A stretch of 21,987 nt of DNA from JBDROU01 sp043809745 [NCBI: bacterium]. GTDB taxonomy: Bacteria > Elusimicrobiota > JBDRMW01. This document shows positions 1-21,837 of this stretch, piece after piece. The DNA lies in the NCBI GenBank assembly GCA_043809745.1, contig JBDROU010000038.1, positions 1-21,987 on the forward strand, in the 5' to 3' direction. Made by a program: the position numbers and the translations under genes. The notes beneath the pieces were generated by a model, which saw only the letters and a list, made by a program, of their open reading frames with translations, made no database searches and was not told the origin of the DNA. Numbering within the stretch: the first letter of the stretch is position 1; the number at the start of each line of letters is the position of its first letter.

Positions 1-1117
1 CTCCGCCTGCTTCCCGTATCGCCACCTGATTTGTTAAGTTCAAGATCACCGCATCTGCATCAAATGCTTTATCCACTAACGCTAACGTGTCTAAATTCGT
101 TATCTGCTTGTCGCTTACCAATGTGTCATAAATACCTCTTCTGAATTTGCTAAGATCATTGTCGCTTACTGGGACACCTGCTAATGTTGGGTAGAGTGAA
201 TCAATGAGAGCATCAACTCCTTTTGATTTTAATAATGTTTTTCTTTCCAGCTGGGTGTAAACATCATTGATTGTGATCGGTGTATCTACATTTATTGGCT
301 CTTCAACTCCGGTATGAATATTGAGTCTTTTGATACTCGTATTGCCTACAGACTCGGCAAGCATTGAAGTTAAAGCAAGATGAAGAACATTCGTGTGATC
401 AAAGGCTCCAGTGAATCTATCGCCAAAAGATACTCCGAGAAGGCTTTCGCCATTTACGGTCTTATTCCACATCATCTCAACAACTTCATTTTGAATTTTA
501 ATTTCCTTTAGGAGATCGGCTGCGTTAGCAAAGCGTTGTACCGGGATTTGGTTTATATCATCAAGCCGGTAATTTAATATAAAACCGTTATACATGCCCG
601 TTCCGATCATTTCTGCATAATTGAAGAGAAGTTTCATTATGTCATCCATATTGACATCTCTTTCGGGGGTAGGAAGTGGAGCGAGTTTCGGAGGGAAATT
701 ATATCCGTGCAATTTAGTTAATTCACCGTAATTTGGATCATTCATTATGTCTTCTATTTGATGAACTTCCACTAAATATGCTGTTGCTTTTGCTTCAGGA
801 GTGGTGGCATCAGGATAGCCAGCAAGTATGGTTCTTGCTTCCATATTAAGCCAAATGTAGAAATAAAAGTTGGTATAATCTTCTGGGGAGATGAACACAT
901 TCAAGAAGCTTTGATCGGCTAGAAGCATATCAATAACTATTTGTTCATCGGATTGAATTACAGCATTTTGTGTGACAACTTCTGCGGCAATTTCCGCAAG
1001 CATCTTCATATCCGCATCGCTGTTTATATCGAATGCCGCATCAGGAGAGCCCATGGTTGCTGATTCCGGTTCTGCAGATGTTGTTCTGAAACCCTGTATT
1101 GATCGCGTGGCGCGGGA
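1..1117 (-). other. Linker and C-terminal helical region, incomplete (residues 6884-7255)
   Basis: A short basic, Ser/Pro-rich linker (SPKKPSRATRSIQGFRT, about 1055-1115) is followed by some 340 further residues, helical with a few possible strands (for example LNIHTGVEEPINVDTPITIN near 265-325). No family recognised. The frame is still open at base 2, so the protein continues outside the window and its total length cannot be given. Confidence 0.7.
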
Positions 1118-4100
1118 CGGCTTCTTGGCGGATCCGGCAACCTTGTTTGCGATACCCATAATGGTTCCAGCGCTTTCTATCATCTGTTTGAGCTGATCCA
1201 TGGAAAGGTTCTTTTCTTCCATTATCTGAGCAAAGTGTTTTGCTATTTTAATAGCCTGTTGTTCTTCCGGCGCCTTCTTTATGTCTACTTTCCCGACTTT
1301 TAATATATGGGTGGTTATCGGTTCTATAATCCCCGCCACAACACCGGTTATACCTTCCTGCTCTTGCTCCATCTCAACGAATGAAAGCAAGAATCTGCGC
1401 GCATCCGGATCGTTAAGCGACAACTCGACTTCCTGCGATTTGCCTGCTATGACGGCAACATCCGCAAATATGGCATTTGCGATTTCTAATTTTTCCCTTT
1501 GTTCGGTCGCCGTCAACCCTGAATAAACATTGGAAACCGCATCTTTATAGAGCAACATGAAATCCCTCATATTAATAACCGGTTCCAATTTCTTGCCGCC
1601 TACAAGCTTATTATTTTCATCTAAATATGCCTTTTCAGCAGACATGGCTTTGAGTATTTCTTTGGTTTTATTTGGATCGCCTGACTCAACGGCGTGCATG
1701 CCGAAGAAAATAAGATGCATTCTAAACTGCTCATTATTCAAGTCTTTCATACTTGCATCGAACCAGTTCCAGCACTCAGGATCTTTTATGAAATCCCCGA
1801 TATTCTCAACAACCTTTTTAATATAACCGTCCTCCGCGAACTTTCCTTCACCATTAAGTTTGATATAAGCAAGGAATTCCAGGAACATGCCCTTAGGACC
1901 TTGCAAATCATCCAATGTAAGCGGTACATTATTGAGAACCGCTGTTTTGTAAACTTCAGCAAGTTCCAACTGCGCATCCAGAGATTTGAGCGCATCGAAA
2001 CCATTTAATCCTTCAATATCAACATATCCCATTACAAGATCCCGGGAAGTACGGTCGATTAATGTAAATGCGTTTGATGCGTCTATATTATAAAGTTTAA
2101 TCAGTTTTGCTTTCACTTGAACCGCCAATCTTAAGTCACTCGCATCGTACTGCTTATAGAACCGGGCGGCTGCATCAAACATAGCATCATAAACAGACGG
2201 ATTGGTCGTCCCGGAATCATAATCCGGAAGCGCAATATTATAAAGCGCGGCAATGTCAGCCTTATTTTGAACCAGATAATCAAATATCTTAATAACTTCT
2301 TCAATTTTATAAGTAACGGCTTTTTTCGCAAAATGAATAAGCAAATCAAGCTCGCCTTCCTTTATTATGCTGGGGGTAAACCTGTCTTGTATCCAGCTCC
2401 AGTCCGCTTTTTTGCTTAATTCCTCAAGATAATCTATTAATGATAGGTAATCCCAATTCTTCTGCTTAAGCTCTTCACCCAATGTTTCCTTAAGCAGCGC
2501 CAGAGATTCGACTAGCGCCAGCCGCTTCGTGTCTATGTCGTCCAGCGTGAAATCCTTGCCGTTAAATAACTTCTTCACGATCTGCCCGTTTAGGATAATT
2601 TCTTGAATTGAGCGCGCATAATCTTCCCCGTTTGGCAAATTAGCCCATTTAAACAAATATTTATGATAACGTTCATCTGAAACCCGATTTTTGTCTGCAT
2701 CTGAGAATGCCGGTTTAAGAAGCTTATCAATAGCATTGAGTTTTACGACATATTTTGTAAAATCACCTTTTTGATAGGTGCCGTTTAAGACAAGCATCAT
2801 ATGGAAAGTAAGAAATGTTTTATCAGTTACCCTGACGGCAAGGAAGTTATCGGCATCCCACCGATCCCCGGTGAGTTCCTCCAGACTATTTTTTATTTGA
2901 GGATCGCCCGCTTCTGTAAGCAGCTGGGTTACCCTGGCCAACCCGTTCAAATTGTTCTTTGTAAGGATATAAGCAACCGCGGCCCAGTGATACAGGCTGT
3001 CCCTATGCTTTTCAACGAAAAGATCCAAATTCATGTTGCTGGCGCGGTAGCCAATAAATATTTCAAGCGGCTCTATGAGCCGTACTATATATTCTACGAG
3101 GAGTTTATCGAAATCACCTCCGATAAGCAGATGGGCAAATGTTTGAAGCAGCTTAATATGGGACATATTCTTCATATCGATAGCCCCACCAAACAGTTTC
3201 TTTTCAGCGCCGGGTATGCTTTTTATAATTGCAGCAGTTTCTTTTACCTTGCTAATAAACAGCGCGGCATCAACATCACCGCCCAATTGCACCTGCGATA
3301 CGGCTCCGTACACCTTAAGCATTTCCGAACCTTCACTCTGAGCGTTAAACACATCCGCGAATTCCTTCATGAACCCTTTCTTTAGCAGTCCGCCTGAAGC
3401 TATTGGGCTCAGTTTTTCAGATGCCGCCTTTTCCTTAAGGTTTCTTGATTTAGCTGAATAAGGATCGAGTATTTCATCGCCTACACCATCAATCTCCTTT
3501 AAGACAGTAAGATAAACCAGGGTTTCTTTTACCGAATTTACATCACGGTTGTTTACCCAGTTATTAATATCAACAGCCCAGTACAGCAAGGAAAGGGTGG
3601 GTTGACCGTACGGATTATTAAAATCCCTATTTTTACCGATTAAATCTTTCAATTTATCACTATAGAGCGTGATTGTGCTCAGCAATGATTCTACATCCGT
3701 TATTGCAAGCCCTCCCGCGCTGGCCAATGTAGTGAAATATTTCAATATCATAGTATGTTTTGAGTTGAAAGGATTAAAACCTTGAGTATCACCTAAAATA
3801 CTTATTACATACGCGTCAATAGGACCCCGCAGTCTGGCCCCATATTCAATTTCTTTTTCGGTCCATGTCTTATCCTTTTCCAACGCAACAGCCCACCATA
3901 AAAGCTCATCCCGGGTATTTCCGTCAAACGGATCTATTTTTGCACCGGGCGCGGGATTAAGGTATTTTACAAGTTTCGTTTCATTTATAAGTGTATTCCA
4001 CTGTCCAAGCAGTTTTATTATTTCGTTATAGCTGAAGATTTCGCTGTCGATACAATCAAATAAGAATTCAGATTTATCAGCAATACCTATTTTTGCTGCA

Positions 4101-16100: not shown

Positions 16101-19100
16101 CGGATTCCAACGGGCAGGTAGGGATCCCCGCTCTTCCACTTTTCAATTGCATTTGATATGTTTTTACTTAATGTTTCTATTACAGGCTGTTTCTCTAGTG
16201 ATACTTCACCAAGCCGCTCAAACTGTTTACTCGATATTAACTTTTCAATTAACTGCACAAAATATGTATCTTCATAGGTAATAGCATCCCGCTGCTGTTT
16301 TCTGAGCTCCTGTGAAACATCCATAAGGGTGCTTTTCATAACAGCATCTATTGCGTTATCAGACAGCTTATCTTGTATATGGCTAAATGCGATATTCGGA
16401 TTATCAACTATCTCCATAAATAACTTTTCGTCATCAATGTTATTCTGCACTACATCCATAATAAGGCTCTTTTCCGTGAATGCCGGGTAAACAGCCTGCA
16501 GTAACCCTCTGTTAAGCCGCTGTAACTCTTCTGCGTTTAGAGACCTGGACGAAATGCCCCTAAGCTTCAACTCTTCTTTGCTTAGTTTTTCACTCATTGC
16601 AATATCTAAAAGTTGTTTTATTTTGGGGTTAATGTTCTTAAATATATCAACATCTATATAGGTATAGAAATCCTTCATTACTAAAATCTTGTTAAAAGCA
16701 GCTGCCATCTGAGCCGGGGTAACATTCTGCAATTCATTGGACTTCAGTCCGAGCGCTTTCAGCAGGATTCTGTTAGATTTGGTATTCAGCTTTAATACGT
16801 CTGACACCGCAAGGTTATAATTGTCCAATTCAATCTCATCGGGTGTAAAGTAATGGTTTTGTATTATGTGTTTTTCTATATTCTTAACAAGCGCATCGCT
16901 CACAGCTTGATTGATTATTCTGTTAATTTCCTGCTTAACAAACAGTATCTCCCTTGCGGCATGCATGTCCTGAATATTTTTTCCCAGATTATTGTTTACT
17001 CCCTTTTCTGTGAGTTTTATTTTGTTTGTATCTATCAGCTGAGTCAGACTCTGTTCAATCATATTGTATAACCTTTGAACTGTTTCCTGATCATTTTGCT
17101 TTAATGGAGTTCCTCTTTTGCTTTCTCTTTCAAGAAGGGCAATTTCGCGTTTTATATCATTTGCTATAAATTTAACTAATGGTTTTTTTGAAGGTATTGC
17201 AATAAGGTTTTCTTTCATCAAGATATTAATAATATCTTTTAATAAAAACGAAACTTGAACAATTTGAGATTTCTTCACAGCTAAATCATCTTCTTTATCG
17301 CCGGTTGCCCATGCGAATGATGTGTTCAAACGCGATTGTATCAGGTCGTCAATCATTTTCAGCTGATCATGCCGGATCTTTTCCTGTTCACTCATAGTAG
17401 TATTTTCGCTGAAGTCCACAGACTCTTTAATAAATGACTCGAACGGTTCTAAAAGGCTTTTTCTCATAATCTTTTTATTAATATCCTCTGCCGCTCCTTC
17501 CATGACTGTTTTCAAAGAGTCGCTCAACCCGGTTCCTTCCAGAACTGCCATCCGCTCAGCGCTCATATCATTTGTCCCTGTGTTCACTTTTTCGTCAAAT
17601 TTATGCAGTTCTTCTGCGGTTTTTAAATTCTCTTCTTCCAGCTTTTTCTGGGCGGCGAAGTGAGATGCTATTTGGGCCTGCTCTTTTAAAAAACCGGGGA
17701 CATCTTCTTTTACTTTGCTGACTTTATCCTGATTATAGGCCGAGAGCATTTCGCCTGACAAGCTTTTATCTATTTTACCGGCAATGTAATTGCGAAGCAT
17801 CTCTCCTGCTTGGCCGGGGGTTTCTCCAAAATGCTTAAGCAAAGGATCCTCTTTAGAGAGCACTATGGTCACAGTTCCCAAACGCCATCTTGGTTTTTTT
17901 GTTTCTGGATTAATATACAACCGGTATATTCTATTAATAGCCTGCTCTAACTTCTGGCTTGATGAAGGCAAACCGGATATTATAATATGCATTTTAACTT
18001 CTTCTTCCGTTTGACCAACTTTAATTGGATCCGGTTTTATATCCATTCCTCTGCCGGCCATATAATTAACAATTGTTATGGCGCCTTTTTTGCCTGCTTT
18101 CTCTCGTTTTTTATCTTCATTTTCGTCTTCTTTTGAATCGATCCGCTGAATGTAAGCTTGCTCTGCTTCATTTAATTTACTTTTCAGGTATTTTTCTATG
18201 TCTTCTACTTCATTTGATGTGTCCGCAAAAATCAGTGTTGCGGTTCCGGCATCATGTTTTGCTTCTGCATCTGAACTTATATCTCCCAGTTTTTCTTTAA
18301 TTGTATCGCAGACAACATATTGAATATCATATACTTTTTTGTTTTCAATTTCTTCTGACTTTTCAATGGGGGCCTTAACAACTTCTTGCCCGTATATCTT
18401 TTTATAGAATTCAGTTAGCGCCTGCGCGGTTCCTGTCATTCCCGGGTAATTTTTATAGTTGTTTGTTATAAACGCGTATATATTGCTCCTGTATTCTGTT
18501 TGGCCTGATTCTTCGCTGGGGTTAAGACCCTCCATCCTTTCCAGACACTCGTGTATCCAGTTCTGATACTTTCTGCCCGGCTGTATCCGGCCTCCGTCTT
18601 TATCTATGATCTCGATCTTTCCGTTCTTTATCTCATAATGGGATCCCTGATGAAACATAGTATCTGCCAGCAGGAATGTCTTCAGCAAATCAAGCAGTTC
18701 CGTTTCCTGATCGGTCTTAAGAGGCACACCTATGGTATCATGGAACAGTTCCTCTCCTGCTTTAGTGAGATTAACCTCGAATTTTTTGTGGTCAACCCAG
18801 TAGAGCAAATTATCCTCCAGCTTTCTTTTGCGGTCAATACCAAGCTTGTTTTCTATCCATCCAAATTCAACATTCATCTGATTAGCCAGCTCGTTTACTT
18901 TTTCCGCTTCTGCTGTATTGGATTCGGCCCCCGGCAGAGCTTGTTTCGCAAGGTACAATTTGATGTAGATATCCTTGTTTTGATACCAGCGCCAGAGTGA
19001 GCCCCATCCGGTGCCTTCTTTATATTTGCCTGAGTCCATCATTTCCTGAACTTCACTAATATATTTACTGGCGACATCAATCTGCTTTTTAATTACCAAA

Positions 19101-21766
19101 TCAACATTCGGCTTCATGGCATCCAGTAATTTCGCATTTTTATCTTTAGAACCGCCTTTGGAAGTTGAGATTATGAAAGGATCTCTCATCTTGTTTACCT
19201 TTATATCGTCATCTTCGTCAAAAAGACCCCATCTGGCATTTTTATATACCAAATCCTTAGTTGATTTCGCAGTGTTGTTGCGCTCCCAATCGAACACGCA
19301 GGTATTGATATCCGCATATAAAGCACTATTTTCATAATTATTACCCCAGGTTTCTCTTCCGTATACAATCCTTTTGGCTTTTTTAACCGCGGCCTCAATT
19401 GCAATTTCTTTGGCTACATGAATGACAGACCGGTCTTTTTTTGCTGCCGCACGAATACTGTTGATAATATCAGTAACTTCCTTATCAACAAATCGGTCAA
19501 ATTCAGACTTCAAACGATCGGGCACAAAGAGGCTTTTTTTGAAAATATCAGTTAACACAACTTTAAGTTGTTCCCCATTACTTATCGACTTTGCTTTTTG
19601 CTTGTATCTTTCAATATCAGCCGCGCTCAGCACAAAACCGACGCTCATGCCGAACGCATTATAAATCTCATGCAGTTTATCTTCACTTTGATAAATATCC
19701 TTTACAAGCTGGTCATTCTGCGTAATAATATGAACCCCGCCGCCTTCAAGAGCCATCCAGATAGCCGCGAGCACACCCACAACCGTTTTTCCGCCGCCGC
19801 ATGGAAGCTCAAGCACATCCCCGTTCACAAGAATTTTGCAGCTCTCAGTCTGATAATCAAAAACATTAAACTTCTTTTTCTTTTCGAATATTCTCTTAAG
19901 CGCGACTAAAACATCTTCCAGCGTTATGTCCCCGATTTCAACAAATTTCTGGAGTTCTTTGAAATCCGCATAAGTCAGCTCCGGCTTCAATAGTATTTGC
20001 TTTCCCGGATGAGTAACAAAAATATCCTCTTCTTTTTCCGACGGAATCTCTTTCTCCTCTTTAGGCGCTTTGGCAACCACAACCGCTCCTTTTTCAGCCG
20101 GCTTCGGCTTCTCTACAGATTTAGGCAGCTCCTGTTCAGGTTTAGCCGGAGGAGTAACGGGTGCAGCTTCAGGCAGAGGTTTTTCAGGAACCGGCGGTTT
20201 TGCGGCAGGGACTTCTTTTATTTCCGGTTTCTCGGGCGATTCTTCAGGCTGTTCAACACCTTCTTCCTCAGTTTTAACAGCCGGCTGTTTTTTGAGCAGT
20301 CCTTTTATTCTTGGGGTTATGACAAAACCGATCATAATGAATTTTGCGGCAATCGGCGGCACCGCGATAATTGGATTGATCGCAAACAGAGCAAGAACAA
20401 CTATCAACATCACTCCGTACGACCTCAAAAATGTTTTCAGCAGCTGTGACGGCAACTTCCCTGAAATAGCCGCGCTATCCGGCTGCTGTTTCTTCAACAA
20501 TAAAATCATTCCGGCTAAAGCGAGAACCCTTGCGATGATTCCCAATCCGTAAGGATCCGATGCCCACGGATTAATAGTATCCAGCAGACCCGCTTCCTCT
20601 GGGGGAACATGATATTCAGGATGAGGAGGAGTTTCATGAAATGATGCCATTTCTTCAGGCTGAGTCCGCAGTTGTACAGGCCCGCTTTCGATTTCGGAAG
20701 GCCCTAAAGGTACCGCGGGCTGAGTCTCAACAGGCACTTGAGCAAGTTCTGTATATTTTACTGCGCCGGTCAGCTCTTCCGGCAATATAAGCTTCTTGCC
20801 AGCTATGATCCGATTCGGGCTGTGAAGCCCGTTCAGAGTGACAATATCAGAAACAAATTTCTTTATGTTTGCCGAGGTTGCAGGTATACCGTTCTCACTA
20901 CACAATTTCGCAACTATTTGAGAAAGCGTGTCGCCTCTCATAATATTCACAAATGTTGCGGCATAACCCAAAACCGGCAGGCCCAACACACATCCGATAA
21001 GCACAACAACGATATTTACCCAAGGATTCTTGAGCTGACCCAATGTGAAGGAGTAGGATATTTTTACGGCAGTTGACAACCAGCTGAACAAAGCACCTAC
21101 ACCTGTTTTCACTGATGGTATAATTGATGCTTTAAATATATCTACATTCTGTGATATGAGGTTCTTAGTATAACTTTTCGTTGATTTAAACAATGATTCA
21201 GCGGTGCGTTTAGCCGATGCCCAAACAGTATAGTTTTTTGACACATCCGCAAGCTGCCGGGCAATACTTTCCAATACCGCTTTCCTGTCAGCTTCTGCAA
21301 ATGTATCAATATGCGGTTGAATAACAGCATCAACCTCTTCCTGAGCACGCGGATTATCAAGCAGGTCTATTAGCTTTGTTTCACCGAGTGTTTGTAAATG
21401 GCGGCGGAGCGCAAGGCGTAAGTCGCTTCTGTATTCGGCCAGATTTTCTTGGCTCCTGATGGTAATACTGCCGTCTAATTCTCTTTGATGCCTGCTTATT
21501 TCGGGTACTTTTTGTGTTTTAAGAGCATCAACCGCTAGTTTAACGCTCCCGTTTTTTTTAGGCGGGGCAACAACTGTTTGGTCAAATGTTATCTCTTTTT
21601 TTATCTCATTTACACCGGGAGGTGCAAGGAAATGCTGCGCTATGGCGTCTGCTGGTACGCTTGTAACTACAAGGCTTATACACACCAAAGAAGCTATAGT
21701 TTTCTTTGAAAATAAAGCAAATAGCAAATACAAAGTATTCTTGTATAGTATTTTCTTAACCTTCAT
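1..21766 (-). CDS. Giant multidomain envelope protein with SecA-like ATPase, 3' end outside window
   Basis: One uninterrupted frame of 7,255 codons from the ATG at 21764-21766 to the codon at 2-4; no stop was met when reading the complement throughout. The ATG is chosen because it opens a good signal peptide (KVKK, then a hydrophobic core at 23-35, then AIA/Q) and sits at the expected start of transcription. The frame stays open upstream to a TAA at 21983-21985, but only a TTG at 21968-21970 could start there and it would destroy the promoter and signal peptide. Domain order: signal peptide, helical domain, membrane helix, LysM, three membrane passes, Pro-rich linker, SecA-like motor, membrane helix, then over 5,000 residues of coiled coil, beta-rich and helical-repeat modules. 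Cysteine is scarce after residue 2108 (about nine seen), as in many exported proteins. Function is not known; an envelope-spanning, ATP-driven surface or secretion machine is my inference. Confidence 0.96.
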   Translation of the reverse strand, partial: MKVKKILYKNTLYLLFALFSKKTIASLVCISLVVTSVPADAIAQHFLAPPGVNEIKKEITFDQTVVAPPKKNGSVKLAVDALKTQKVPEISRHQRELDGSITIRSQENLAEYRSDLRLALRRHLQTLGETKLIDLLDNPRAQEEVDAVIQPHIDTFAEADRKAVLESIARQLADVSKNYTVWASAKRTAESLFKSTKSYTKNLISQNVDIFKASIIPSVKTGVGALFSWLSTAVKISYSFTLGQLKNPWVNIVVVLIGCVLGLPVLGYAATFVNIMRGDTLSQIVAKLCSENGIPATSANIKKFVSDIVTLNGLHSPNRIIAGKKLILPEELTGAVKYTELAQVPVETQPAVPLGPSEIESGPVQLRTQPEEMASFHETPPHPEYHVPPEEAGLLDTINPWASDPYGLGIIARVLALAGMILLLKKQQPDSAAISGKLPSQLLKTFLRSYGVMLIVVLALFAINPIIAVPPIAAKFIMIGFVITPRIKGLLKKQPAVKTEEEGVEQPEESPEKPEIKEVPAAKPPVPEKPLPEAAPVTPPAKPEQELPKSVEKPKPAEKGAVVVAKAPKEEKEIPSEKEEDIFVTHPGKQILLKPELTYADFKELQKFVEIGDITLEDVLVALKRIFEKKKKFNVFDYQTESCKILVNGDVLELPCGGGKTVVGVLAAIWMALEGGGVHIITQNDQLVKDIYQSEDKLHEIYNAFGMSVGFVLSAADIERYKQKAKSISNGEQLKVVLTDIFKKSLFVPDRLKSEFDRFVDKEVTDIINSIRAAAKKDRSVIHVAKEIAIEAAVKKAKRIVYGRETWGNNYENSALYADINTCVFDWERNNTAKSTKDLVYKNARWGLFDEDDDIKVNKMRDPFIISTSKGGSKDKNAKLLDAMKPNVDLVIKKQIDVASKYISEVQEMMDSGKYKEGTGWGSLWRWYQNKDIYIKLYLAKQALPGAESNTAEAEKVNELANQMNVEFGWIENKLGIDRKRKLEDNLLYWVDHKKFEVNLTKAGEELFHDTIGVPLKTDQETELLDLLKTFLLADTMFHQGSHYEIKNGKIEIIDKDGGRIQPGRKYQNWIHECLERMEGLNPSEESGQTEYRSNIYAFITNNYKNYPGMTGTAQALTEFYKKIYGQEVVKAPIEKSEEIENKKVYDIQYVVCDTIKEKLGDISSDAEAKHDAGTATLIFADTSNEVEDIEKYLKSKLNEAEQAYIQRIDSKEDENEDKKREKAGKKGAITIVNYMAGRGMDIKPDPIKVGQTEEEVKMHIIISGLPSSSQKLEQAINRIYRLYINPETKKPRWRLGTVTIVLSKEDPLLKHFGETPGQAGEMLRNYIAGKIDKSLSGEMLSAYNQDKVSKVKEDVPGFLKEQAQIASHFAAQKKLEEENLKTAEELHKFDEKVNTGTNDMSAERMAVLEGTGLSDSLKTVMEGAAEDINKKIMRKSLLEPFESFIKESVDFSENTTMSEQEKIRHDQLKMIDDLIQSRLNTSFAWATGDKEDDLAVKKSQIVQVSFLLKDIINILMKENLIAIPSKKPLVKFIANDIKREIALLERESKRGTPLKQNDQETVQRLYNMIEQSLTQLIDTNKIKLTEKGVNNNLGKNIQDMHAAREILFVKQEINRIINQAVSDALVKNIEKHIIQNHYFTPDEIELDNYNLAVSDVLKLNTKSNRILLKALGLKSNELQNVTPAQMAAAFNKILVMKDFYTYIDVDIFKNINPKIKQLLDIAMSEKLSKEELKLRGISSRSLNAEELQRLNRGLLQAVYPAFTEKSLIMDVVQNNIDDEKLFMEIVDNPNIAFSHIQDKLSDNAIDAVMKSTLMDVSQELRKQQRDAITYEDTYFVQLIEKLISSKQFERLGEVSLEKQPVIETLSKNISNAIEKWKSGDPYLPVGIRQRGLFIPRNIPFSGISGPVGRVSTRLEQEVAVLNSRIPAANSAAMNEIDGLILKKEYLQYILDAVKSNKLNTKDRSHLLKALDSWMQEDWLAEAESKRQAINATTPKGKKPADIYNAEMAEIYIKRWETIRAYLAAGFVIVPPEAEGSSDALDREDVDPVVLALESNKDEFAAALDAFAPPGKKLSVEKSKKEKFLKAAGYILPFIGANVVAGIVTTAGRTEDVPAAITSTAVQNLRIEYDKLKDLEKSGEISKQQKEDLKVIEKKKTALEKMLNLYQLSMQKNELRKKITEWWNGNSDYKAYENQNAELGKINKKIETLRTQLTEGNKSFVKDFAVKKLEEIEAEVQKLLEIRLSLYENIKQRNDLEKKFVESLSGEQRLDIEAHLLERDHLDLGSEYLYIEIENTIIEFQIAKNELKQQEANKKDSYEQPLKVYRKIKNLLAEHKSHLVKVIRAIEKPMEIIALKDMLDKPEELLVKDELYSIVEYLVKSNNASKEVKTTMKSINALKDAKNVAGLLEFARKQYLEEQEKILTQQVQDNIRALRDLGRLNDGIKYDKKNRAYITAEDFKTLINLVITTYEKNSGSDRKDIQLSLENLILETVIYTNEKFLADEKLLAELNEETKDIEVIDEVIQQKREIEALKDKLKIVEKDQKTLAQETTEADEKASRVVDKRVYENRRDDLTKTIEIDTEGYELERLEIEKERCTHELARIKALSEIDDLQQEIKKIDKEIERLLKIDSAESKADAQKQKDKKKELVEQQREKQAIVREKSEVLDILAMKLDKVWVLELKQSNYKPDSKYLSYRDVKLLQFATYLIKFNWQTLNDKDMESVKDAIRILKDKYQIEDAKSENTLESEPYTKLLGDAEACLARQIKIEESKLEDSTILRDLAKLKGSVDEIMSGIEKEHSKNKVKIDDKFIQSSRWKKLDADSQEQIMRAKKAIEELARISDLIILSQRIDTLLKQAKSQKDNAVVMQVISLLKQAADLKVLDWSALSGSDIDTRDGCIKLAEQLQKMAQEKLTVGQMRKRLLALQRELPELYKVLGITLPKSAVGELMNKTSENITKALAQLDEMQEENEKLYKLRKDILPQTEDQITYSSEIEKLRKLLLFEKSKEKEKSLFTQLTKDIAKFLNIQHKRDKEYENSIADYKNEHQDYEIKAHENQREIALLEGKINAEPGNTDESKKLLEQYKYRMKQLAIEKKEYYYLMRINDLYVENIQKQKVLDKLDEQRLISRDQEVIKAMTAYEIEINDLSIEKYQIQIELDKIEKELNTKLFEYAQEQNVEERKAIGQAIYNLELKKIEKEAELENKENLIRIQRLKMGEEKDHMTLDVALALSDDSNEQVKQLKILLAKYWKILEIDENQLKSIKEKPETFDKPLKELLIALQKKYNLPQNRHGGWDGNWDKTTRDAVFGSIDRKIQRDIDELQSKIDGSGKQVEIKQALFKYELEDRMLQEKIDNYKNEKESAPRSRRKMLDGINAIIKILQSVNRKKLEKGKIDMDGIAFETQRAKEQTLVINSKEQELLQLELEIARLEFIELGSALKDNDSVEKLLKDIELEVSPDELDKRYRDKKIKELKAQHQEAEELIAMWKKLFNLEETKLWLEGLPMEVSFEWEIDLNEKLMERARILYWIQLKKLQKIDEKAKGWETGSSKTLKELESDLALVEADINISKAEIEVEKKKQEISKHKAGSEGYTIAEIELKKAELNVQRAKLVKGKLTATDKQKAEIDVRSKAIDKNESWLLQLENVITVLYKMHNSNMRPFYEVTKRFTRLSSKEVDSLLTFFRSLDYLGKDSFTPTTPWLKKSLADFINMNAADQAKQKIRLEKIIKIIVAEENIKNNKDPNRAVYLNLVLEIALDEWELLEAYEKLDPNAVNEQTAQLHHDISTIEKRIARNEMLRDKADGKLSGLLGKAGTQAPKGAFPGLADYFVKNNENKLEYEKYDYVEKCRTHIKSNDTLSYNDLERIVGNRKDLIPELIRNVLKVEPETVDALMYLFEIMHSDEAKDLDLRVFINKSDIIKHIDDLFAEKGKHKLKEDVIKKFALNLIGMEQNTRAVYTKEQTIKLTDDMGNMLKDIFNMLQQVNKHPGFVNPEDRERYSKLISAWQNFVKASKNIVSEGDANHPINLLKPQLWLGLIDEKAGQDGITANLAFQITGEQFQKLKEKNIKHEVVEAYSTAFLNFSKELFSVGKQYAAVYMKLMLSEYNAKAVEQELNDIDRDLNKTKDKDSRFKLKIKRSEILFELARAKSQLKKVQHEYQLYARLPESVLPRTMEDAKDLETLRAVMEQKSKELVTIITKHSKYQRPDITRYKEDVPAVKQDFWYHFGLYFDMGVDIADLQNFSADYMNMIKINARLWSPSDDAANEVKQNELKEYKEKCRAMAKALQKAIDQNKSLSNDAWINGRFNEYIEFLLNQTEAEWLLEVYNTRKQGVENQQVQQKDSGGFLNGVKTFFSNIFTSEKPKLPAVPKTTAPPGIIPERAKPKPAKKGVSVSKLMEAQTQKEAGIAKKIADHLDKLNPANTLDAIIDRGKLVLNGLPKELSPNQRKALFEKLDVESRLYDLIVHHKDTRSKEIREAWVWIIDVIDAVPDSFIEDFEGMLNKLDRQDVKTVISEIVKAYNVKLARQARWAQSKKELDLVSEKLAKLNAMISRITSKINQIKSIKQDKSIQKSVQNVSDGINTRQAQLNKAKQLFYDSKTAFAKIVEDNKNTANVTDSMDTIDAARDLMLKKFTNCAEQFENKDKSEIRDEIMSLCEARDKIYNFRSNMRKEFNEKYYGWMSEMFLHKDLRAGWWTRKIMPGKAKEILQENLNKHYASIKNDMNNGVNKYKKYFDTNSAKREFDKEVAKLQIMIVSRMGMDLSTRAENKTGYLRAPPLESLDPEVASLITTAWKEDIEIKLNKLRNEKSEYALKMMLNEKHIDAGLAIAMFYLSYYSSSDSRSPEKLQVQKKIIEMQEILTNIIRTTLAMKTADAYYAYLKALEEGTVKVKKGAEPALEAYWRLPESVRNSLKKGKLPFRNAYSETEHKKVFDRNGILAAHLTDLYKQYLTASVSLQEFKTRALEKDSEEFKFILYIVPELTSFLIVNAVSNGVFWLSKLVFDSGPSPQQAQAAQKQYELAAEILVDYLDDLKKENRVEKPGGQQKMQSESAVSAEYYWGPQGLVYVEQSRRDDGTYVIRTKEDRFQDEISVELLRKESPFQTMEVTASDGNINLLFAGDVHLQNTKVDYEGLTSSDPNKFDKALDNLLNIKAQVSVSGFDTFGKDKDTYSDDTDKPKTSFKVNVEYQNKKLIDGVEISVPIVVAVDEQNQGSYFIGTGINTDSGFEIRNGLEIDKKGKPTFWMNGVKGFELNKEFTGELRIGFTAGDYLNANGFLLQKVGDKFIIELESNYDSEQQEHDLSASGKYKRGSSYFGMGFTQKKGGDIVPAVSWEMKNPVDGVRTINFVTKFEKEGPEIDVAAQSIIAALFGLGVSARVQPGENSQNEYNIKLQRQMAGGRQGVSAGVSLQGAETTVKLGVIKDRNEIGASFGGQNAFTSAHKIWINGLLTGIIKIDVDETSRRLKFGVLSGAGYTQHITNLPLGNDVYGGSMGGSHLILENISNAEKQPPPPPSKSDLTSKRSEQAPGASPSNAGNRLVAAILNNAGKIFPNTAPGTKTSGEQQPSTPSENDVASQQSGTMVASNERTDAAPGAFSRNAKKLVETVLASRVVGWLLPNSAIAGSEKPPLTESVPGALPAESEDLQKNINNASNIISRLDQLSSSTLLASERGIFELAQKMHEQLQQNMDKLNNLSVEYKDFKANNSIEKLTALEKRALNEREVEAARASAALLDETLAKADVKISEINTLLKEAEVTFESYIKANQDLRAGIGKDIENLYNRLSEKGKEISKLIEQMQAAYNEFMQAYNNAIEKVNELESKYDNMVSAIERSRSSAITKLRNLLGSVEQESKSLSGKFIQVEQKRSAAVAGTDKIERKLQKHEQDAIRQAAAKIGIADKSEFLFDCIDSEIFSYNEIIKLLGQWNTLINETKLVKYLNPAPGAKIDPFDGNTRDELLWWAVALEKDKTWTEKEIEYGARLRGPIDAYVISILGDTQGFNPFNSKHTMILKYFTTLASAGGLAITDVESLLSTITLYSDKLKDLIGKNRDFNNPYGQPTLSLLYWAVDINNWVNNRDVNSVKETLVYLTVLKEIDGVGDEILDPYSAKSRNLKEKAASEKLSPIASGGLLKKGFMKEFADVFNAQSEGSEMLKVYGAVSQVQLGGDVDAALFISKVKETAAIIKSIPGAEKKLFGGAIDMKNMSHIKLLQTFAHLLIGGDFDKLLVEYIVRLIEPLEIFIGYRASNMNLDLFVEKHRDSLYHWAAVAYILTKNNLNGLARVTQLLTEAGDPQIKNSLEELTGDRWDADNFLAVRVTDKTFLTFHMMLVLNGTYQKGDFTKYVVKLNAIDKLLKPAFSDADKNRVSDERYHKYLFKWANLPNGEDYARSIQEIILNGQIVKKLFNGKDFTLDDIDTKRLALVESLALLKETLGEELKQKNWDYLSLIDYLEELSKKADWSWIQDRFTPSIIKEGELDLLIHFAKKAVTYKIEEVIKIFDYLVQNKADIAALYNIALPDYDSGTTNPSVYDAMFDAAARFYKQYDASDLRLAVQVKAKLIKLYNIDASNAFTLIDRTSRDLVMGYVDIEGLNGFDALKSLDAQLELAEVYKTAVLNNVPLTLDDLQGPKGMFLEFLAYIKLNGEGKFAEDGYIKKVVENIGDFIKDPECWNWFDASMKDLNNEQFRMHLIFFGMHAVESGDPNKTKEILKAMSAEKAYLDENNKLVGGKKLEPVINMRDFMLLYKDAVSNVYSGLTATEQREKLEIANAIFADVAVIAGKSQEVELSLNDPDARRFLLSFVEMEQEQEGITGVVAGIIEPITTHILKVGKVDIKKAPEEQQAIKIAKHFAQIMEEKNLSMDQLKQMIESAGTIMGIANKVAGSAKKPSRATRSIQGFRTTSAEPESATMGSPDAAFDINSDADMKMLAEIAAEVVTQNAVIQSDEQIVIDMLLADQSFLNVFISPEDYTNFYFYIWLNMEARTILAGYPDATTPEAKATAYLVEVHQIEDIMNDPNYGELTKLHGYNFPPKLAPLPTPERDVNMDDIMKLLFNYAEMIGTGMYNGFILNYRLDDINQIPVQRFANAADLLKEIKIQNEVVEMMWNKTVNGESLLGVSFGDRFTGAFDHTNVLHLALTSMLAESVGNTSIKRLNIHTGVEEPINVDTPITINDVYTQLERKTLLKSKGVDALIDSLYPTLAGVPVSDNDLSKFRRGIYDTLVSDKQITNLDTLALVDKAFDADAVILNLTNQVAIREAGG
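1118..4081 (-). other. Alpha-helical solenoid region (residues 5896-6883)
   Basis: About 990 residues that read as successive helix-turn-helix units of about 50 residues. A repeated first-helix signature of form LLxWA appears at W5958 (ELLWWAVAL), W6063 (SLLYWAVDI), Y6153 (MLKVYGAVS), W6261 (SLYHWAAVA), W6374 (YLFKWANLP) and F6479 (LLIHFAKKA), at intervals of about 90-113 residues. A second type of hairpin lies between these. Later units continue less clearly to about 6750. The pattern resembles TPR/HEAT-type solenoids, which bind peptides or proteins, but matches no consensus I know. Confidence 0.5.
4082..4861 (-). other. Third coiled coil (residues 5636-5895)
   Basis: About 250 residues of regular heptads rich in Glu, Lys, Leu and Ala, for example RLDQLSSSTLLASERGIFEL, MQAAYNEFMQAYNNAIEKVN and RKLQKHEQDAIRQAAAK. 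It sits between the duplicated linker and the helical-repeat region. No catalytic or binding motif is visible; a spacer or oligomerisation rod is likely. Confidence 0.8.
4862..5281 (-). repeat. Duplicated Pro/Ser/Ala linker (residues 5496-5635)
   Basis: A flexible linker made of two diverged copies about 166 bp apart, at roughly 5129-5259 and 4934-5092. Both contain APGA, then a short S/N segment, then NA..LV...L.........PN.A..G. At DNA level the plus strand shares TAGAGGTTAAATCAC (5209) with GAGAGGCTACATCAT (5044), each followed by TTTTGGATGGTG or TTTCGGATGGTG and then AGGCTGCT. The second copy carries extra bases. The N-terminal end has a five-proline run encoded by near-identical CCA codons (about 5230-5243), which could vary in length in frame. 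Confidence 0.65.
5282..6601 (-). other. Beta-strand-rich domain (residues about 5056-5495)
   Basis: Composition changes abruptly from helical to Gly, Thr, Val, Phe, Tyr and Asn-rich, with short alternating hydrophobic/polar strands joined by Gly/Asp/Asn turns: TGELRIGFTAGDYL, KFIIELESNYD, SSYFGMGFTQKKGGD, PAVSWEMKN, RTINFVTKFEKEG, TTVKLGVIKDRNEIGASFGG. I count roughly twenty such strands. Two WxNG motifs lie exactly 200 residues apart (W5243, W5443). The amphipathic strands fit either an outer-membrane beta-barrel or a stack of beta-sandwich domains; sequence alone does not decide. No known family recognised. Confidence 0.7.
6662..8581 (-). other. Second helical/coiled-coil region (residues 4396-5035)
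   Basis: About 640 residues, mainly helical, with coiled-coil stretches (for example SELDLVSEKLAKLNAMISRI near 8100-8165). It carries the second RLPESV motif (residues 4903-4908). Near its end residues 4971-4998 (FKFILYIVPELTSFLIVNAV and following) are quite hydrophobic but contain Lys, Pro and Glu, so I do not call a membrane helix. No family recognised. Confidence 0.55.
7042..7060 (-). repeat. 19-bp exact repeat, copy 2 (RLPESV)
   Basis: Identical 19 bases to 9262-9280, encoding RLPESV at residues 4903-4908, preceded by EAYW. Flanking protein similarity is weak, so this is either the best-kept part of an old internal duplication or a recurring turn motif. Confidence 0.85.
8582..8785 (-). 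other. Gln/Pro/Lys-rich linker (residues 4328-4395)
   Basis: A low-complexity spacer: QQVQQKDSGG, then EKPKLPAVPKTTAPPG, then ERAKPKPAKKGVSVSK. It separates two helical regions and is of the same style as the linker before the motor. It is likely extended and flexible, and has no recognisable motif. Confidence 0.75.
8786..10396 (-). other. Mixed helical region (residues 3791-4327)
   Basis: Helical but less regular than the preceding stalk, with more Pro, Gly and aromatic residues (for example HPINLLKPQLWLGLIDEK near 9660-9710, FWYHFGLYFDMGVD near 9065-9105). I recognise no family. It includes the first of two RLPESV motifs (residues 4163-4168) and an RPDI at 4205-4208. Together these faintly recall outer-membrane efflux (TolC) proteins, but the overall pattern is not convincing. 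Confidence 0.5.
9262..9280 (-). repeat. 19-bp exact repeat, copy 1 (RLPESV)
   Basis: Plus-strand GCACCGATTCAGGCAGCCT, identical to 7042-7060 and in the same reading frame. It encodes RLPESV at residues 4163-4168, preceded by QLYA. The two copies are 740 residues apart, both at the end of a helical stretch. Confidence 0.85.
10397..15433 (-). other. Long coiled-coil stalk (residues 2112-3790)
   Basis: About 1,680 residues dominated by Glu, Lys, Leu, Gln and Ile with heptad spacing and very few Pro, Gly or Cys (for example EIERLLKIDSAES, ELEIARLEFIE, VEKKKQEISKHKAG). Some stretches are close to internal repeats, such as the AEIE/AEID units at about 10860-11075. Short breaks occur (for example LPQNRHGGWDGNWDK near 11840-11900 and VLDWSALSGSDIDT near 13085-13125) and probably mark hairpin turns or hinges. 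It resembles SMC- or myosin-like rods only in general composition. A structural stalk is inferred. Confidence 0.85.
15258..15283. repeat. Perfect inverted repeat inside the coding region
   Basis: Ten-base perfect arms ATGCTTAATT / AATTAAGCAT around a six-base loop GATATA, followed on the plus strand by TTTTT. It has the shape of a weak, AT-rich intrinsic terminator for transcription running antisense to the gene. On the coding strand it encodes MLNLYQLSM in the coiled coil. With only two G-C pairs per arm it may be chance. Confidence 0.4.
15446..15508 (-). other. Predicted transmembrane helix (residues 2087-2107)
   Basis: AAGYILPFIGANVVAGIVTTA is uncharged and hydrophobic for 21 residues. 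It is preceded by a strongly basic segment (KSKKEKFLK) and followed by neutral to acidic GRTEDVPAAITS. By the positive-inside rule it runs from cytosol to outside. This would place everything downstream, at least 5,100 residues, beyond the inner membrane. It is moderately hydrophobic, so a hairpin or buried helix cannot be excluded. Confidence 0.65.
15509..17746 (-). other. Helical region after the motor (residues 1341-2086)
   Basis: About 750 residues, nearly all predicted helix from the composition and heptad-like spacing, without a family I recognise. It could include the counterpart of SecA's helical scaffold or wing, but I see no specific motif. A less regular patch near 1885-1925 (GISGPVGRV, IPRNIPFSG) breaks the helices. 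The end contains LDAFAPPGKK at about 2064-2073, which echoes the FLAPPG that follows the signal peptide, and then a Lys-rich stretch leading into the next membrane helix. Confidence 0.6.
17747..19978 (-). other. SecA-like DEAD/helicase ATPase (residues 597-1340)
   Basis: SecA is the ATPase that pushes proteins through SecYEG. Motifs in order: LPCGGGKT at 654-661 against SecA M(K/R)TGEGKT (Walker A, K660-T661); VHIITQNDQLVKD at 678-690 against VHVVTVNDYLAKRD; IVYG at 800-803 against ITYGTNNE; DEDDDIKVNKMRDPFIIS at 850-867, an ungapped match to DEVDSILIDEARTPLIIS (Walker B D850-E851); MTGTA at 1110-1114 followed by EFYKKIYGQEVV; the second lobe with TLIFADTS; YMAGRGMDIKP near 1235-1245 against NMAGRGTDI; QAINRIYR at 1275-1282 against QLRGRSGR; and IVLSKEDPLLKHFG at 1301-1314 against FYLSLEDDLMRIFG. 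Catalytic residues look intact. Differences: GGGKT for GEGKT, both glycines of motif VI replaced, and about 90 extra residues between 710 and 799. The Cys-rich SecA tail was not seen. A helicase of another SF2 family is unlikely given the SecA-specific RxPxIIS segment. Confidence 0.92.
20027..20287 (-). other. Pro/Glu/Lys-rich linker (residues 494-580)
   Basis: A low-complexity stretch of alternating Pro, Glu, Lys and Ala (for example PEKPEIKEVPAAKPPVPEKP), much like the rigid extended spacers of TonB-type proteins. It joins the membrane block to the ATPase. It has no enzymatic motif. Its likely role is to hold the motor at a distance from the membrane. Confidence 0.8.
20315..20776 (-). other. 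Acidic Pro-rich linker and membrane block (residues 331-484)
   Basis: Residues 331-405 form a flexible acidic linker rich in Pro, Glu and Thr (for example ETPPHPEYHVPPEEAG). A membrane helix follows at about 406-424 (GLGIIARVLALAGMILLL), then a basic loop (KK at 425-426, K437, K444, R448), then a long hydrophobic stretch at 451-483 broken by Pro-Pro at 470-471, best read as two passes. It ends in TPRIKGLLKK. The basic flanks put the 425-450 loop and the following linker in the cytosol (positive-inside rule). Confidence 0.75.
20777..21019 (-). other. Transmembrane helix and LysM domain (residues 250-330)
   Basis: Residues 250-273 are a clean membrane helix (VNIVVVLIGCVLGLPVLGY and following). 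Directly after it comes a LysM domain: RGDTLSQIVAKL at 277-288 matches the usual GDTLxxIA opening, IVTLNGL at 308-314 is the central asparagine strand/helix, and IIAGKKLILP at 320-329 matches the closing I.pGq.L.iP strand. The length, about 55 residues, is near the usual 45-50 with a small insertion (295-304). LysM binds N-acetylglucosamine-containing polymers such as peptidoglycan, so this probably ties the protein to the wall. Confidence 0.8.
21020..21637 (-). other. N-terminal helical domain (residues 44-249)
   Basis: Begins with FLAPPGVNEI directly after the signal peptide, then a mostly helical, charged region of about 175 residues with no family I recognise. Residues 222-244 (GVGALFSWLSTAVKISYSF and following) are amphipathic to hydrophobic and may be a weak membrane or re-entrant helix just ahead of the first clear membrane helix. 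That would help place the following LysM domain outside the membrane. Confidence 0.6.
21638..21766 (-). other. Signal peptide (residues 1-43)
   Basis: Basic start MKVKKILYKN, then a long hydrophobic stretch whose core TIASLVCISLVVT covers residues 23-35, then VPADAIA before QHFLAPP. Signal peptidase I cleavage fits after A43 (A41-I-A43) or after A41. The Cys at 29 is not in a proper lipobox. The extended n-region before the core is longer than usual. This sends the chain to the Sec pathway. Confidence 0.85.
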
Positions 21767-21782: not shown

Positions 21783-21837
21783 AAAGATGTTAAGTTAATG
21801 TAAAAACGATGTAAAATTATTGTAAAATTAATGTAAA
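21783..21837 (-). promoter_or_regulatory. Five tandem 11-bp PhoB/PhoP-type operator repeats
   Basis: Read on the minus strand, five abutting 11-bp units share one core: TTTACATTAAT, TTTACAATAAT, TTTACATCGTT, TTTACATTAAC and TTAACATCTTT. The core is therefore TT(T/A)ACA at exact 11-bp spacing, one helical turn. This matches the layout of direct-repeat sites for OmpR/PhoB-family response regulators, and fits the Bacillus PhoP consensus TT(A/C/T)ACA with about 5-bp spacers. The last unit ends 4 bp before the -10 hexamer and no good -35 lies 16-18 bp upstream of it, so the repeats occupy the place of the -35, as at activator-dependent promoters. The regulator itself is not in the window; a phosphate signal is inferred, not shown. 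Confidence 0.75.

What the first reader, a model, noticed from the sequence alone, without database searches (positions are those of the whole stretch)
1..21766. A single bacterial gene of more than 7,255 codons fills the window
The minus-strand frame is open from 21766 to the left edge with no stop, and the translation is coherent throughout (signal peptide, domains, linkers). This is far beyond ordinary bacterial proteins. Standard ORF lists can miss it because it has no stop in the window, leaving only misleading antisense shadows.
Basis: seen in the sequence. Interest (0 to 1): 0.92.

Follow-up and report, generated by a model that had tools for sequence, protein, structure and literature searches.

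The report
Giant bacterial gene with SecA-like motor
The window is the first 22 kb of one unbroken giant bacterial gene, most like the giant genes of the Omnitrophota, and near its start it carries a relative of SecA, the motor that pushes proteins through the cell membrane, a combination that recurs in other giant genes of that phylum.

Summary
Confirmed: one minus-strand frame runs from ATG 21766 to base 2, 7,255 codons without a stop, coding-type throughout; the gene's end lies outside the window. The protein begins with a signal/membrane segment, three or four more membrane segments around a borderline LysM domain, a linker, then a SecA-like ATPase (aa ~607-1509) with its ATPase motifs kept. 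About 3,400 charged, mostly helical residues follow, then a glycine-rich beta region and a helical region. SecA-like and helical parts are collinear with an 11,957-aa frame (G063), beta and helical parts with a 7,132-aa frame (G404), both in Omnitrophota genomes. SecA-like matches lie in long frames (1,910-39,687 aa) of 15 Omnitrophota genomes, including the giant of the predator Velamenicoccus archaeovorus LiM; G063 also has SecY. Ordinary SecA loci read GEGKT (38 of 38); the window reads GGGKT and 14 of the 15 also lack the glutamate. Not universal: the complete 45,379-aa giant of G108 showed no SecA-like match. Best reading: a membrane-anchored giant envelope protein with its own Sec-type motor. 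Giant genes are known; the built-in motor seems little noticed. What the motor moves is inference; the host phylum is likely, not proven.

The parts
2..21766 (-). Open reading frame of 7,255 codons, from ATG at 21766, no stop before the window ends (5' part of a giant gene)
21788..21837 (-). About 4.6 tandem copies of an 11-bp unit (TTTACA + 5) just upstream of the start; spacing is that of OmpR/PhoB-type operators (recalled; function inferred)
   Evidence: 3 matches with up to 2 mismatches, mean 0.01 in 100 shuffles; exact pattern in 0 of 142 loci, most of which hold no promoter of a giant gene
21632..21766 (-). aa 1-45, signal peptide or first membrane helix (basic start, hydrophobic core, A-x-A-like end)
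   Evidence: hydropathy with recalled scales
20960..21022 (-). aa 249-269, predicted membrane helix
20780..20938 (-). aa 277-329, LysM-like domain (peptidoglycan-binding type), just below Pfam's cut-off
   Evidence: PF01476, E 5.2e-4, 20.3 bits against 20.9
20321..20551 (-). aa 406-482, two or three predicted membrane helices
20057..20320 (-). aa 483-570, proline/lysine/glutamate-rich linker
17240..19948 (-). aa 607-1509, SecA-like ATPase: DEAD-like motor half, preprotein cross-linking domain, second motor half, helical scaffold part
   Evidence: SecA_DEAD 1.4e-20, SecA_PP_bind 1.2e-13, P-loop_SecA 6.1e-8; NF009538 4.7e-50 (170.6 bits, cut-off 814); SecA structures, best 2.9e-30
19784..19798 (-). 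aa 657-661, Walker A motif, GGGKT in place of SecA's GEGKT
19208..19219 (-). aa 850-853, Walker B motif DEDD
18038..18055 (-). aa 1238-1243, motif V GRGMDI (GRGTDI in ordinary SecA)
6857..17239 (-). aa 1510-4970, long charged, mostly helical (coiled-coil-like) stretch without a known domain above cut-off
   Evidence: a weak collinear match to G063 at aa 4042-4257 (20% identity, 5e-7)
6764..6850 (-). aa 4973-5001, possible membrane helix before the beta region (one scale only)
   Evidence: Kyte-Doolittle 1.72; not among the candidates
5297..6679 (-). aa 5030-5490, glycine-rich amphipathic beta region, outer-membrane-barrel-like (fold inferred)
   Evidence: matches to G108 and G404; Pfam none; model pLDDT 33, unusable
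1667..4699 (-). aa 5690-6700, helical region shared with other long frames
   Evidence: G063, 3.7e-18; G205, 1.6e-18; G404, 6.8e-23
137..490 (-). aa 7093-7210, one ~115-aa unit of the kind repeated at the 5' end of the G008 giant frame (match itself aa 7128-7199)
   Evidence: 2.3e-5; 3.9e-6

Best explanation
This is the front part of a giant gene of Omnitrophota type. It encodes a giant envelope protein anchored in the inner membrane by its N-terminal helices, carrying a SecA-type ATPase on the cytoplasmic side, followed by a long helical rod, a barrel-like beta region, helical modules and probably a long repeat tail beyond the window. Shown: the unbroken frame, the SecA-like domain with its ATPase motifs, the shared order with other long frames, and the recurrence of SecA-like domains in such frames. 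Inferred: that the motor is active, and that it serves as a dedicated, chain-attached Sec motor which helps thread the giant's own distal part (or a partner protein) across the inner membrane, where ordinary SecA might be slow or swamped by chains of tens of thousands of residues.
For: Unbroken coding frame. All three SecA Pfam domains above their cut-offs. Walker A lysine and threonine, Walker B, motif III (MTGTA), motif V and the Q/R/R of motif VI kept. Same order of SecA-like domain and helical region in the 11,957-aa frame of G063, where a SecY domain (1.3e-29) sits before the SecA-like domain. Beta then helical order shared with G404; in G108 the beta match comes from the window and the helical match from the G063 query. 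SecA-like matches in long frames of 15 Omnitrophota genomes, among them the LiM giant. A common departure from ordinary SecA in motif I. Membrane segments precede the motor, and basic residues follow the last of them (sequence).
Against: No experiment. The motor is not universal in giants: the complete 45,379-aa frame of G108, which shares the beta region, had no SecA-like match at E 0.01 (its only SecA lies outside it), nor did the 32,526-aa frame of G008, which is cut at both ends. In one search, 11 of 16 genomes showed none in a long frame. The host genome is not held and only Omnitrophota (and one planctomycete genome) could be searched as whole genomes, so the phylum is likely, not proven. 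Identity to other SecA-like domains is 17-26% and branches are saturated. SecY was found in one giant only. The SecA C-terminal zinc motif is absent. Two single-sequence structure models failed (pLDDT 33 and 42). Membrane topology rests on simple hydropathy, and aa 1-245 do not fit one clean topology.
Confidence: 0.45

Rival explanations
1. The SecA-like part is a weapon or effector-side machine: an ATP-driven unfoldase or helicase-like domain that acts on prey or host molecules, the rest of the giant being an adhesive arm.
For: Giant ORFs are proposed to serve attachment and predation (PMC10066038 passages). SecA-like helicase-related domains are listed among Amoebophilus effector domains (PMC3482391 passage). 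The LiM giant holds lytic transglycosylase and glycosyltransferase domains near its SecA-like part.
Against: The motor follows several membrane segments and a cytoplasm-like linker, and one giant pairs it with SecY, which fits export better than attack. ATP is scarce outside cells (general knowledge).
Confidence: 0.2
2. The frame is a polyprotein: it is cut after translation and the SecA-like part works as a separate accessory SecA.
For: Another Omnitrophota frame (G023) strings together a response regulator, pantoate transferase, PPDK and SecA domains, which looks like fused separate enzymes.
Against: No protease family appeared in the Pfam or NCBIfam scans of the window. Order of parts is kept over thousands of residues between window, G063 and G404, as for one working chain.
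Confidence: 0.12
3. The SecA-like part is a retired ATPase kept as a structural module of a surface coat.
For: Very long branch in the tree; motif I altered; LiM and G180 have more worn motifs; no zinc motif.
Against: In the window the lysine and threonine of Walker A, DE of Walker B, MTGTA, GRG.DI and the arginines of motif VI all remain; unused ATPase sites usually decay.
Confidence: 0.13
4. Artefact: the frame is a chance opening, an assembly error, or not bacterial.
For: Only one contig; host genome not held.
Against: No stop in 7,255 codons where ~509 were expected from base composition, even codon-position pattern, collinear relatives in independent genomes, bacterial SecA-type domain.
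Confidence: 0.02

Closest known systems
Giant ORF of Candidatus Velamenicoccus archaeovorus LiM (39,678 aa in PMC10066038; 39,687-aa frame)
   Same: One giant frame with many membrane helices and few annotated domains, and, found here, a SecA-like domain (TIGR00963 8.4e-29).
   Different: Its SecA-like domain lies about 10,600 residues in, has a different Walker A (NSGKS), and has glycosyltransferase and lytic transglycosylase domains nearby. Comparing the window in 1,000-aa pieces with the LiM stretch 30001-190000 gave no match at E 0.01; the SecA match is (2.8e-6).
Giant frame G063 C26 (11,957 aa, open at contig end, unnamed Omnitrophota genome)
   Same: SecA-like domain, then helical region, in the same order over ~5,800 residues of the window; pairs with the window in the SecA tree (90/89, not starred).
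   Different: Has ~4,000 more residues in front, with a phosphoesterase and a SecY domain; different N-terminus; no window match for the beta region at E 0.01.
Giant frame G404 C114 (7,132 aa, open at both contig ends)
   Same: Beta region and helical region collinear with the window.
   Different: Contig starts inside a charged, helix-like part, so its SecA region, if any, is not seen; continues into repeats.
Housekeeping SecA
   Same: DEAD-like motor, cross-linking domain, second motor half and scaffold.
   Different: Ordinary SecA is a separate protein (frames up to 1,079 aa in the rows shown) with GEGKT (38 of 38) and mostly a C-terminal zinc motif (32 of 38); the window's is part of a giant, GGGKT, no zinc motif.
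SecA-like helicase-related domains of Amoebophilus effectors (PMC3482391, passage only)
   Same: SecA-like domain in a non-housekeeping multidomain protein.
   Different: Not compared by sequence here; described as host-directed effectors of an endosymbiont.

Membership tests
SecA preprotein translocase (equivalog) | Whole-protein score above NCBIfam cut-off | tested here: not met
   170.6 bits against 814 (NF009538), 168.7 against 800 (TIGR00963)
SecA preprotein translocase (equivalog) | SecA_DEAD, SecA_PP_bind and P-loop_SecA domains in order | tested here: met
   74.2, 52.1 and 33 bits, all above Pfam cut-offs
SecA preprotein translocase (equivalog) | Walker A GEGKT | tested here: not met
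   GGGKT in window; GEGKT in 38 of 38 ordinary SecA loci
SecA preprotein translocase (equivalog) | C-terminal zinc-binding motif | tested here: not met
   none in the window protein; 32 of 38 ordinary SecA in their last 120 aa, (pattern recalled)
SecA preprotein translocase (equivalog) | ATP-driven translocation through SecYEG | not testable with these tools
   needs biochemistry
Giant ORFs of Omnitrophota (>20 kb, PMC10066038) | Single frame longer than 20 kb | tested here: met
   21,765 bp and still open
Giant ORFs of Omnitrophota (>20 kb, PMC10066038) | Predicted membrane helices and few annotated domains | tested here: met
   hydropathy only; SecA domains above Pfam cut-off and LysM just below it
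Giant ORFs of Omnitrophota (>20 kb, PMC10066038) | Host is Omnitrophota | tested here: inconclusive
   host genome not held; collinear relatives in Omnitrophota giant frames, but other phyla could not be searched the same way
Giant ORFs of Omnitrophota (>20 kb, PMC10066038) | Role in attachment or predation | not testable with these tools
   proposed in PMC10066038, not shown for this gene

The most novel reading that the evidence does not exclude
Omnitrophota giants carry their own diverged Sec motor (in one case SecY as well) within the polypeptide, so that a chain of tens of thousands of residues is exported by a translocase that is part of itself: a self-exporting giant protein, with a distinct SecA lineage marked by loss of the Walker-A glutamate.
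Probability: 0.25. Interest if true: 0.88.

Novelty: new variant of a known kind. Interest (0 to 1): 0.62.

Why it matters
How bacteria export and fold proteins of 10,000-45,000 residues is open, and the roles of Omnitrophota giant ORFs are described as poorly understood (PMC10066038). A recurring, motif-marked SecA-like motor inside a number of these chains, also in the LiM predator, gives a concrete handle on how such giants may be moved, and lets existing proteomes and genomes test it.

Tried and rejected
Led nowhere: the SecA part against genome contigs and five pieces against viral contigs, by exact peptide patterns, gave no relative. The 16S signature was in 0 viral contigs. The N-terminal 560 residues gave 1 weak match in 384 Omnitrophota genomes (E 6.4e-4, with two stops inside, not used). 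One search (355 of 384 genomes matched) showed only ordinary-length SecA frames in its cut listing; it scored two candidates per genome and so could miss the giants that later showed. One search (33 of 36 genomes matched at 1e-10) showed one long frame, G023. The G063 SecY-SecA stretch had no match but itself at 1e-20 in the 27 genomes of its order. Structure models of the beta region and the SecA part had mean pLDDT 33 and 42 and were not searched by fold.

Considered and rejected: alternative genetic code (not needed, no stop in table 11); chance opening or assembly artefact; that the membrane-helix clusters after SecA in G043, G117, G278 and LiM are SecY (no SecY match in Pfam or NCBIfam). 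Undecided: single origin or repeated capture of the giants' SecA (one clade not rejected, p 0.648, but branches are saturated and the tool warns that long branches meet). My first count of GEGKT (22 of 22) was circular because those rows had been picked by that motif; it was replaced (38 of 38, no motif filter): 36 Omnitrophota loci brought, and one more Omnitrophota and one from a record titled Planctomycetota. These 38 were best matches to the window's SecA, not a random draw. One search, a first try on one strand only, left 12 of 38 without a hit and 2 with the motif outside the alignment. The tree used 22 motif-picked ordinary SecA rows plus one.

Limits: the SecA-in-long-frame counts are lower bounds, since cut its listing; the 16 genomes were chosen for matches to the window or G063 (LiM apart), so 5 of 16 is no prevalence. 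Pfam confirmation of SecA was run for G023, G063, G043, LiM, G117 and G278 only; the other nine rest on the search match. Motif readings for G110, G156 C40, G180 and G096 rest on alignments of 24-25% identity. The phylum-wide draws are 384 of a larger group.

Full report
What is there. The minus strand of the window holds one reading frame from ATG 21766 to base 2: 7,255 codons, no stop, open at the window's end. The other five frames hold 233 to 748 stops and no stop-free run above 198 codons, and all 15 blocks of 500 codons (the last shorter) show the same coding-type G+C pattern by codon position. From base composition alone about 509 stops would be expected. The gene is intact as far as it is seen; nothing looks broken. 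No whole genome is held for the window, so the gene's end and neighbours are unknown.

Start region. The likely start is ATG 21766, followed by a basic, hydrophobic signal-like segment. Between 21787 and 21837 lie 4.6 copies of an 11-bp unit; a three-unit pattern occurs 3 times with up to 2 mismatches against 0.01 expected and, exact, in 0 of the 142 loci then held, most of which hold no start of a giant gene. Tandem 11-bp units are typical of OmpR/PhoB-type regulator sites (recalled); regulation of this gene by such a protein is inference.

Anatomy. By simple hydropathy with recalled scales, membrane segments lie at about aa 19-39, 249-269, 406-426 and 449-482; a further one at 4973-5001 appears on one scale only (not). 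A LysM match at aa 277-329 is just below Pfam's cut-off (20.3 against 20.9 bits). A proline-rich linker (483-570) leads to a SecA-like region, aa ~607-1509: SecA_DEAD 1.4e-20, SecA_PP_bind 1.2e-13, P-loop_SecA 6.1e-8; the best solved relative is a SecA1 structure, 1nkt, at 2.9e-30. The ordinary SecA equivalog cut-offs are missed by far (170.6 against 814 bits). Residues 1510-4970 are lysine/glutamate-rich and helical in character; 5001-5500 is the stretch richest in glycine (8-14%), where the strand moment exceeds the helix moment; the rest to 7255 is again mostly helical in character.

SecA motifs. Against ordinary SecA the window keeps the Q motif, the Walker A lysine and threonine, Walker B DE, MTGTA, GRG.DI and the Q/R/R pattern of motif VI (motif VI read from the pairwise alignment, since the multiple alignment misplaced it). 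Its Walker A is GGGKT. In 38 of 38 ordinary SecA loci, taken without a motif filter, it is GEGKT. The C-terminal zinc motif is found in 32 of those 38 and not in the window.

Relatives. In 384 Omnitrophota genomes the C-terminal 2,386 residues matched 4: three inside frames of 11,957 (G063), 45,379 (G108) and 32,526 aa (G008), and one weakly in an 853-aa frame. In 197 genomes of the class of G063 they matched 4: the same G063, G108 and G008, and G404, a 21,399-bp contig that is one frame end to end. Collinearity: window 651-1306 with G063 4564-5310, 4042-4257 with 7862-8068 (weak), 5758-6496 with 10465-11434; window 5180-5502, 5732-6070 and 6527-6691 with G404 3704-4050, 4200-4560 and 5042-5212; 5757-6483 with G205 (1.6e-18); 5194-5357 with part of the 45,379-aa frame of G108 (2.7e-8). 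Identities are 20-35%. The last unit, aa 7128-7199, matches repeats at the 5' end of the 97,582-bp G008 contig, which is one frame. If that weak match reflects homology, much of the window's gene is still to come. With the G063 helical end as query, 13 of 384 genomes matched, G063 included, many through a short repeat in smaller frames.

SecA in giants. With all candidates scored, 5 of 16 genomes show SecA-like matches in frames above 2,000 aa: G063, G043, G117, G278 and LiM; 11 of 16 do not, among them G108, whose 45,379-aa frame is complete, and G008, whose frame is cut at both ends. With a G117 query 162 of 175 genomes matched, mostly through ordinary SecA, and at least 11 of 175 show a match in a frame of 1,910 to 11,305 aa, 5 of them at 7,861 aa or more (listing cut). 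With G023 (8,199 aa) this makes 15 genomes. In 10 of the 15 the Walker A reads GGGK; G110 and G096 have GFGK, G180 AGGK, LiM NSGK, and only G023 keeps GEGK. The LiM case is clear at profile level (SecA_PP_bind 1.8e-14; TIGR00963 8.4e-29). G063 also has SecY (1.3e-29) before its SecA-like part. Near the motor, LiM carries glycosyltransferase and lytic transglycosylase domains and G043 a glucoamylase-type domain; the parts scanned of G117 and G278 showed only SecA above cut-off. In the tree window and G063 pair at 90/89 (not starred) with saturated branches; one origin of all giant SecA-like domains is neither shown nor rejected (p 0.648).

How it may work. The layout fits an inner-membrane anchor with the motor in the cytoplasm and the distal parts crossing the envelope. 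The SecY-SecA pairing in G063 and the repeated presence of the motor make a dedicated, chain-borne Sec motor the most likely role. This step is inferred, and a giant without the motor (G108) shows that it is not needed by every giant. Rivals are an effector-side ATPase, a cut polyprotein, and a retired ATPase used as structure.

Literature. Giant ORFs above 20 kb are known to be common in Omnitrophota and proposed to act in attachment or predation; the LiM giant is given as 39,678 aa with 42 predicted membrane helices (PMC10066038, passages and section 12). Other passages seen: PMC12057145, PMC11573180, PMC3482391, PMC10469934, PMC12583861. In the held main texts of PMC10066038, PMC12057145 and PMC11573180 the term SecA has 0 occurrences; supplements were not open to me. 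Searches for Omnitrophota with SecA (1 paper), SecA with giant protein, domain fusion and SecY (1 paper), Omnitrophota with giant and SecA or SecY terms (10 of 21 papers listed each), and SecA-like with giant protein or polymorphic toxin (1 and 2 papers) showed, in the titles, abstract starts and passages that I saw, none that describes SecA in these giants. The 2023 bioRxiv study on giant genes (cited in PMC12057145) and the 2022 LiM paper are not held or were not found and were not read, so prior mention there cannot be excluded.

Noticed in passing
L125 (G021:C1 50001-70000), match at C1:61629-62420: The giant ORF of Velamenicoccus archaeovorus LiM contains a SecA-like domain, with glycosyltransferase and SLT lytic transglycosylase domains nearby.
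   Followed up: partly
L086 (G063:C26), aa 305-620 of L086:2-10000: A SecY domain lies before the SecA-like domain in one giant frame.
   Followed up: partly
L076/L077 (G023:C38): An 8,199-aa frame, open at the contig start, strings together response regulator, pantoate transferase, PPDK and SecA domains.
   Followed up: partly
G021:C1 87910-128188: Inside the LiM giant gene a second frame on the same strand is stop-free for 40,278 bp.
   Followed up: no
L088-L092 (G008:C5): A 97,582-bp contig is one open frame from end to end, with tandem protein repeats near its 5' end.
   Followed up: partly
L087 end and L122 start (G063 C26 and C9): The frame at the end of contig C26 and the 6,993-aa frame at the start of C9 share the same 14 residues, so the G063 giant probably continues there; not joined.
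   Followed up: no
L085, L133, L135, L137: Giant frames of G063, G043, G117 and G278 share an N-terminus (REELG/REEPG-like stretch, a signal-like segment and a conserved INIQDAH stretch) that the window lacks.
   Followed up: no
window 21787-21837: Tandem 11-bp repeats just upstream of the start codon.
   Followed up: partly
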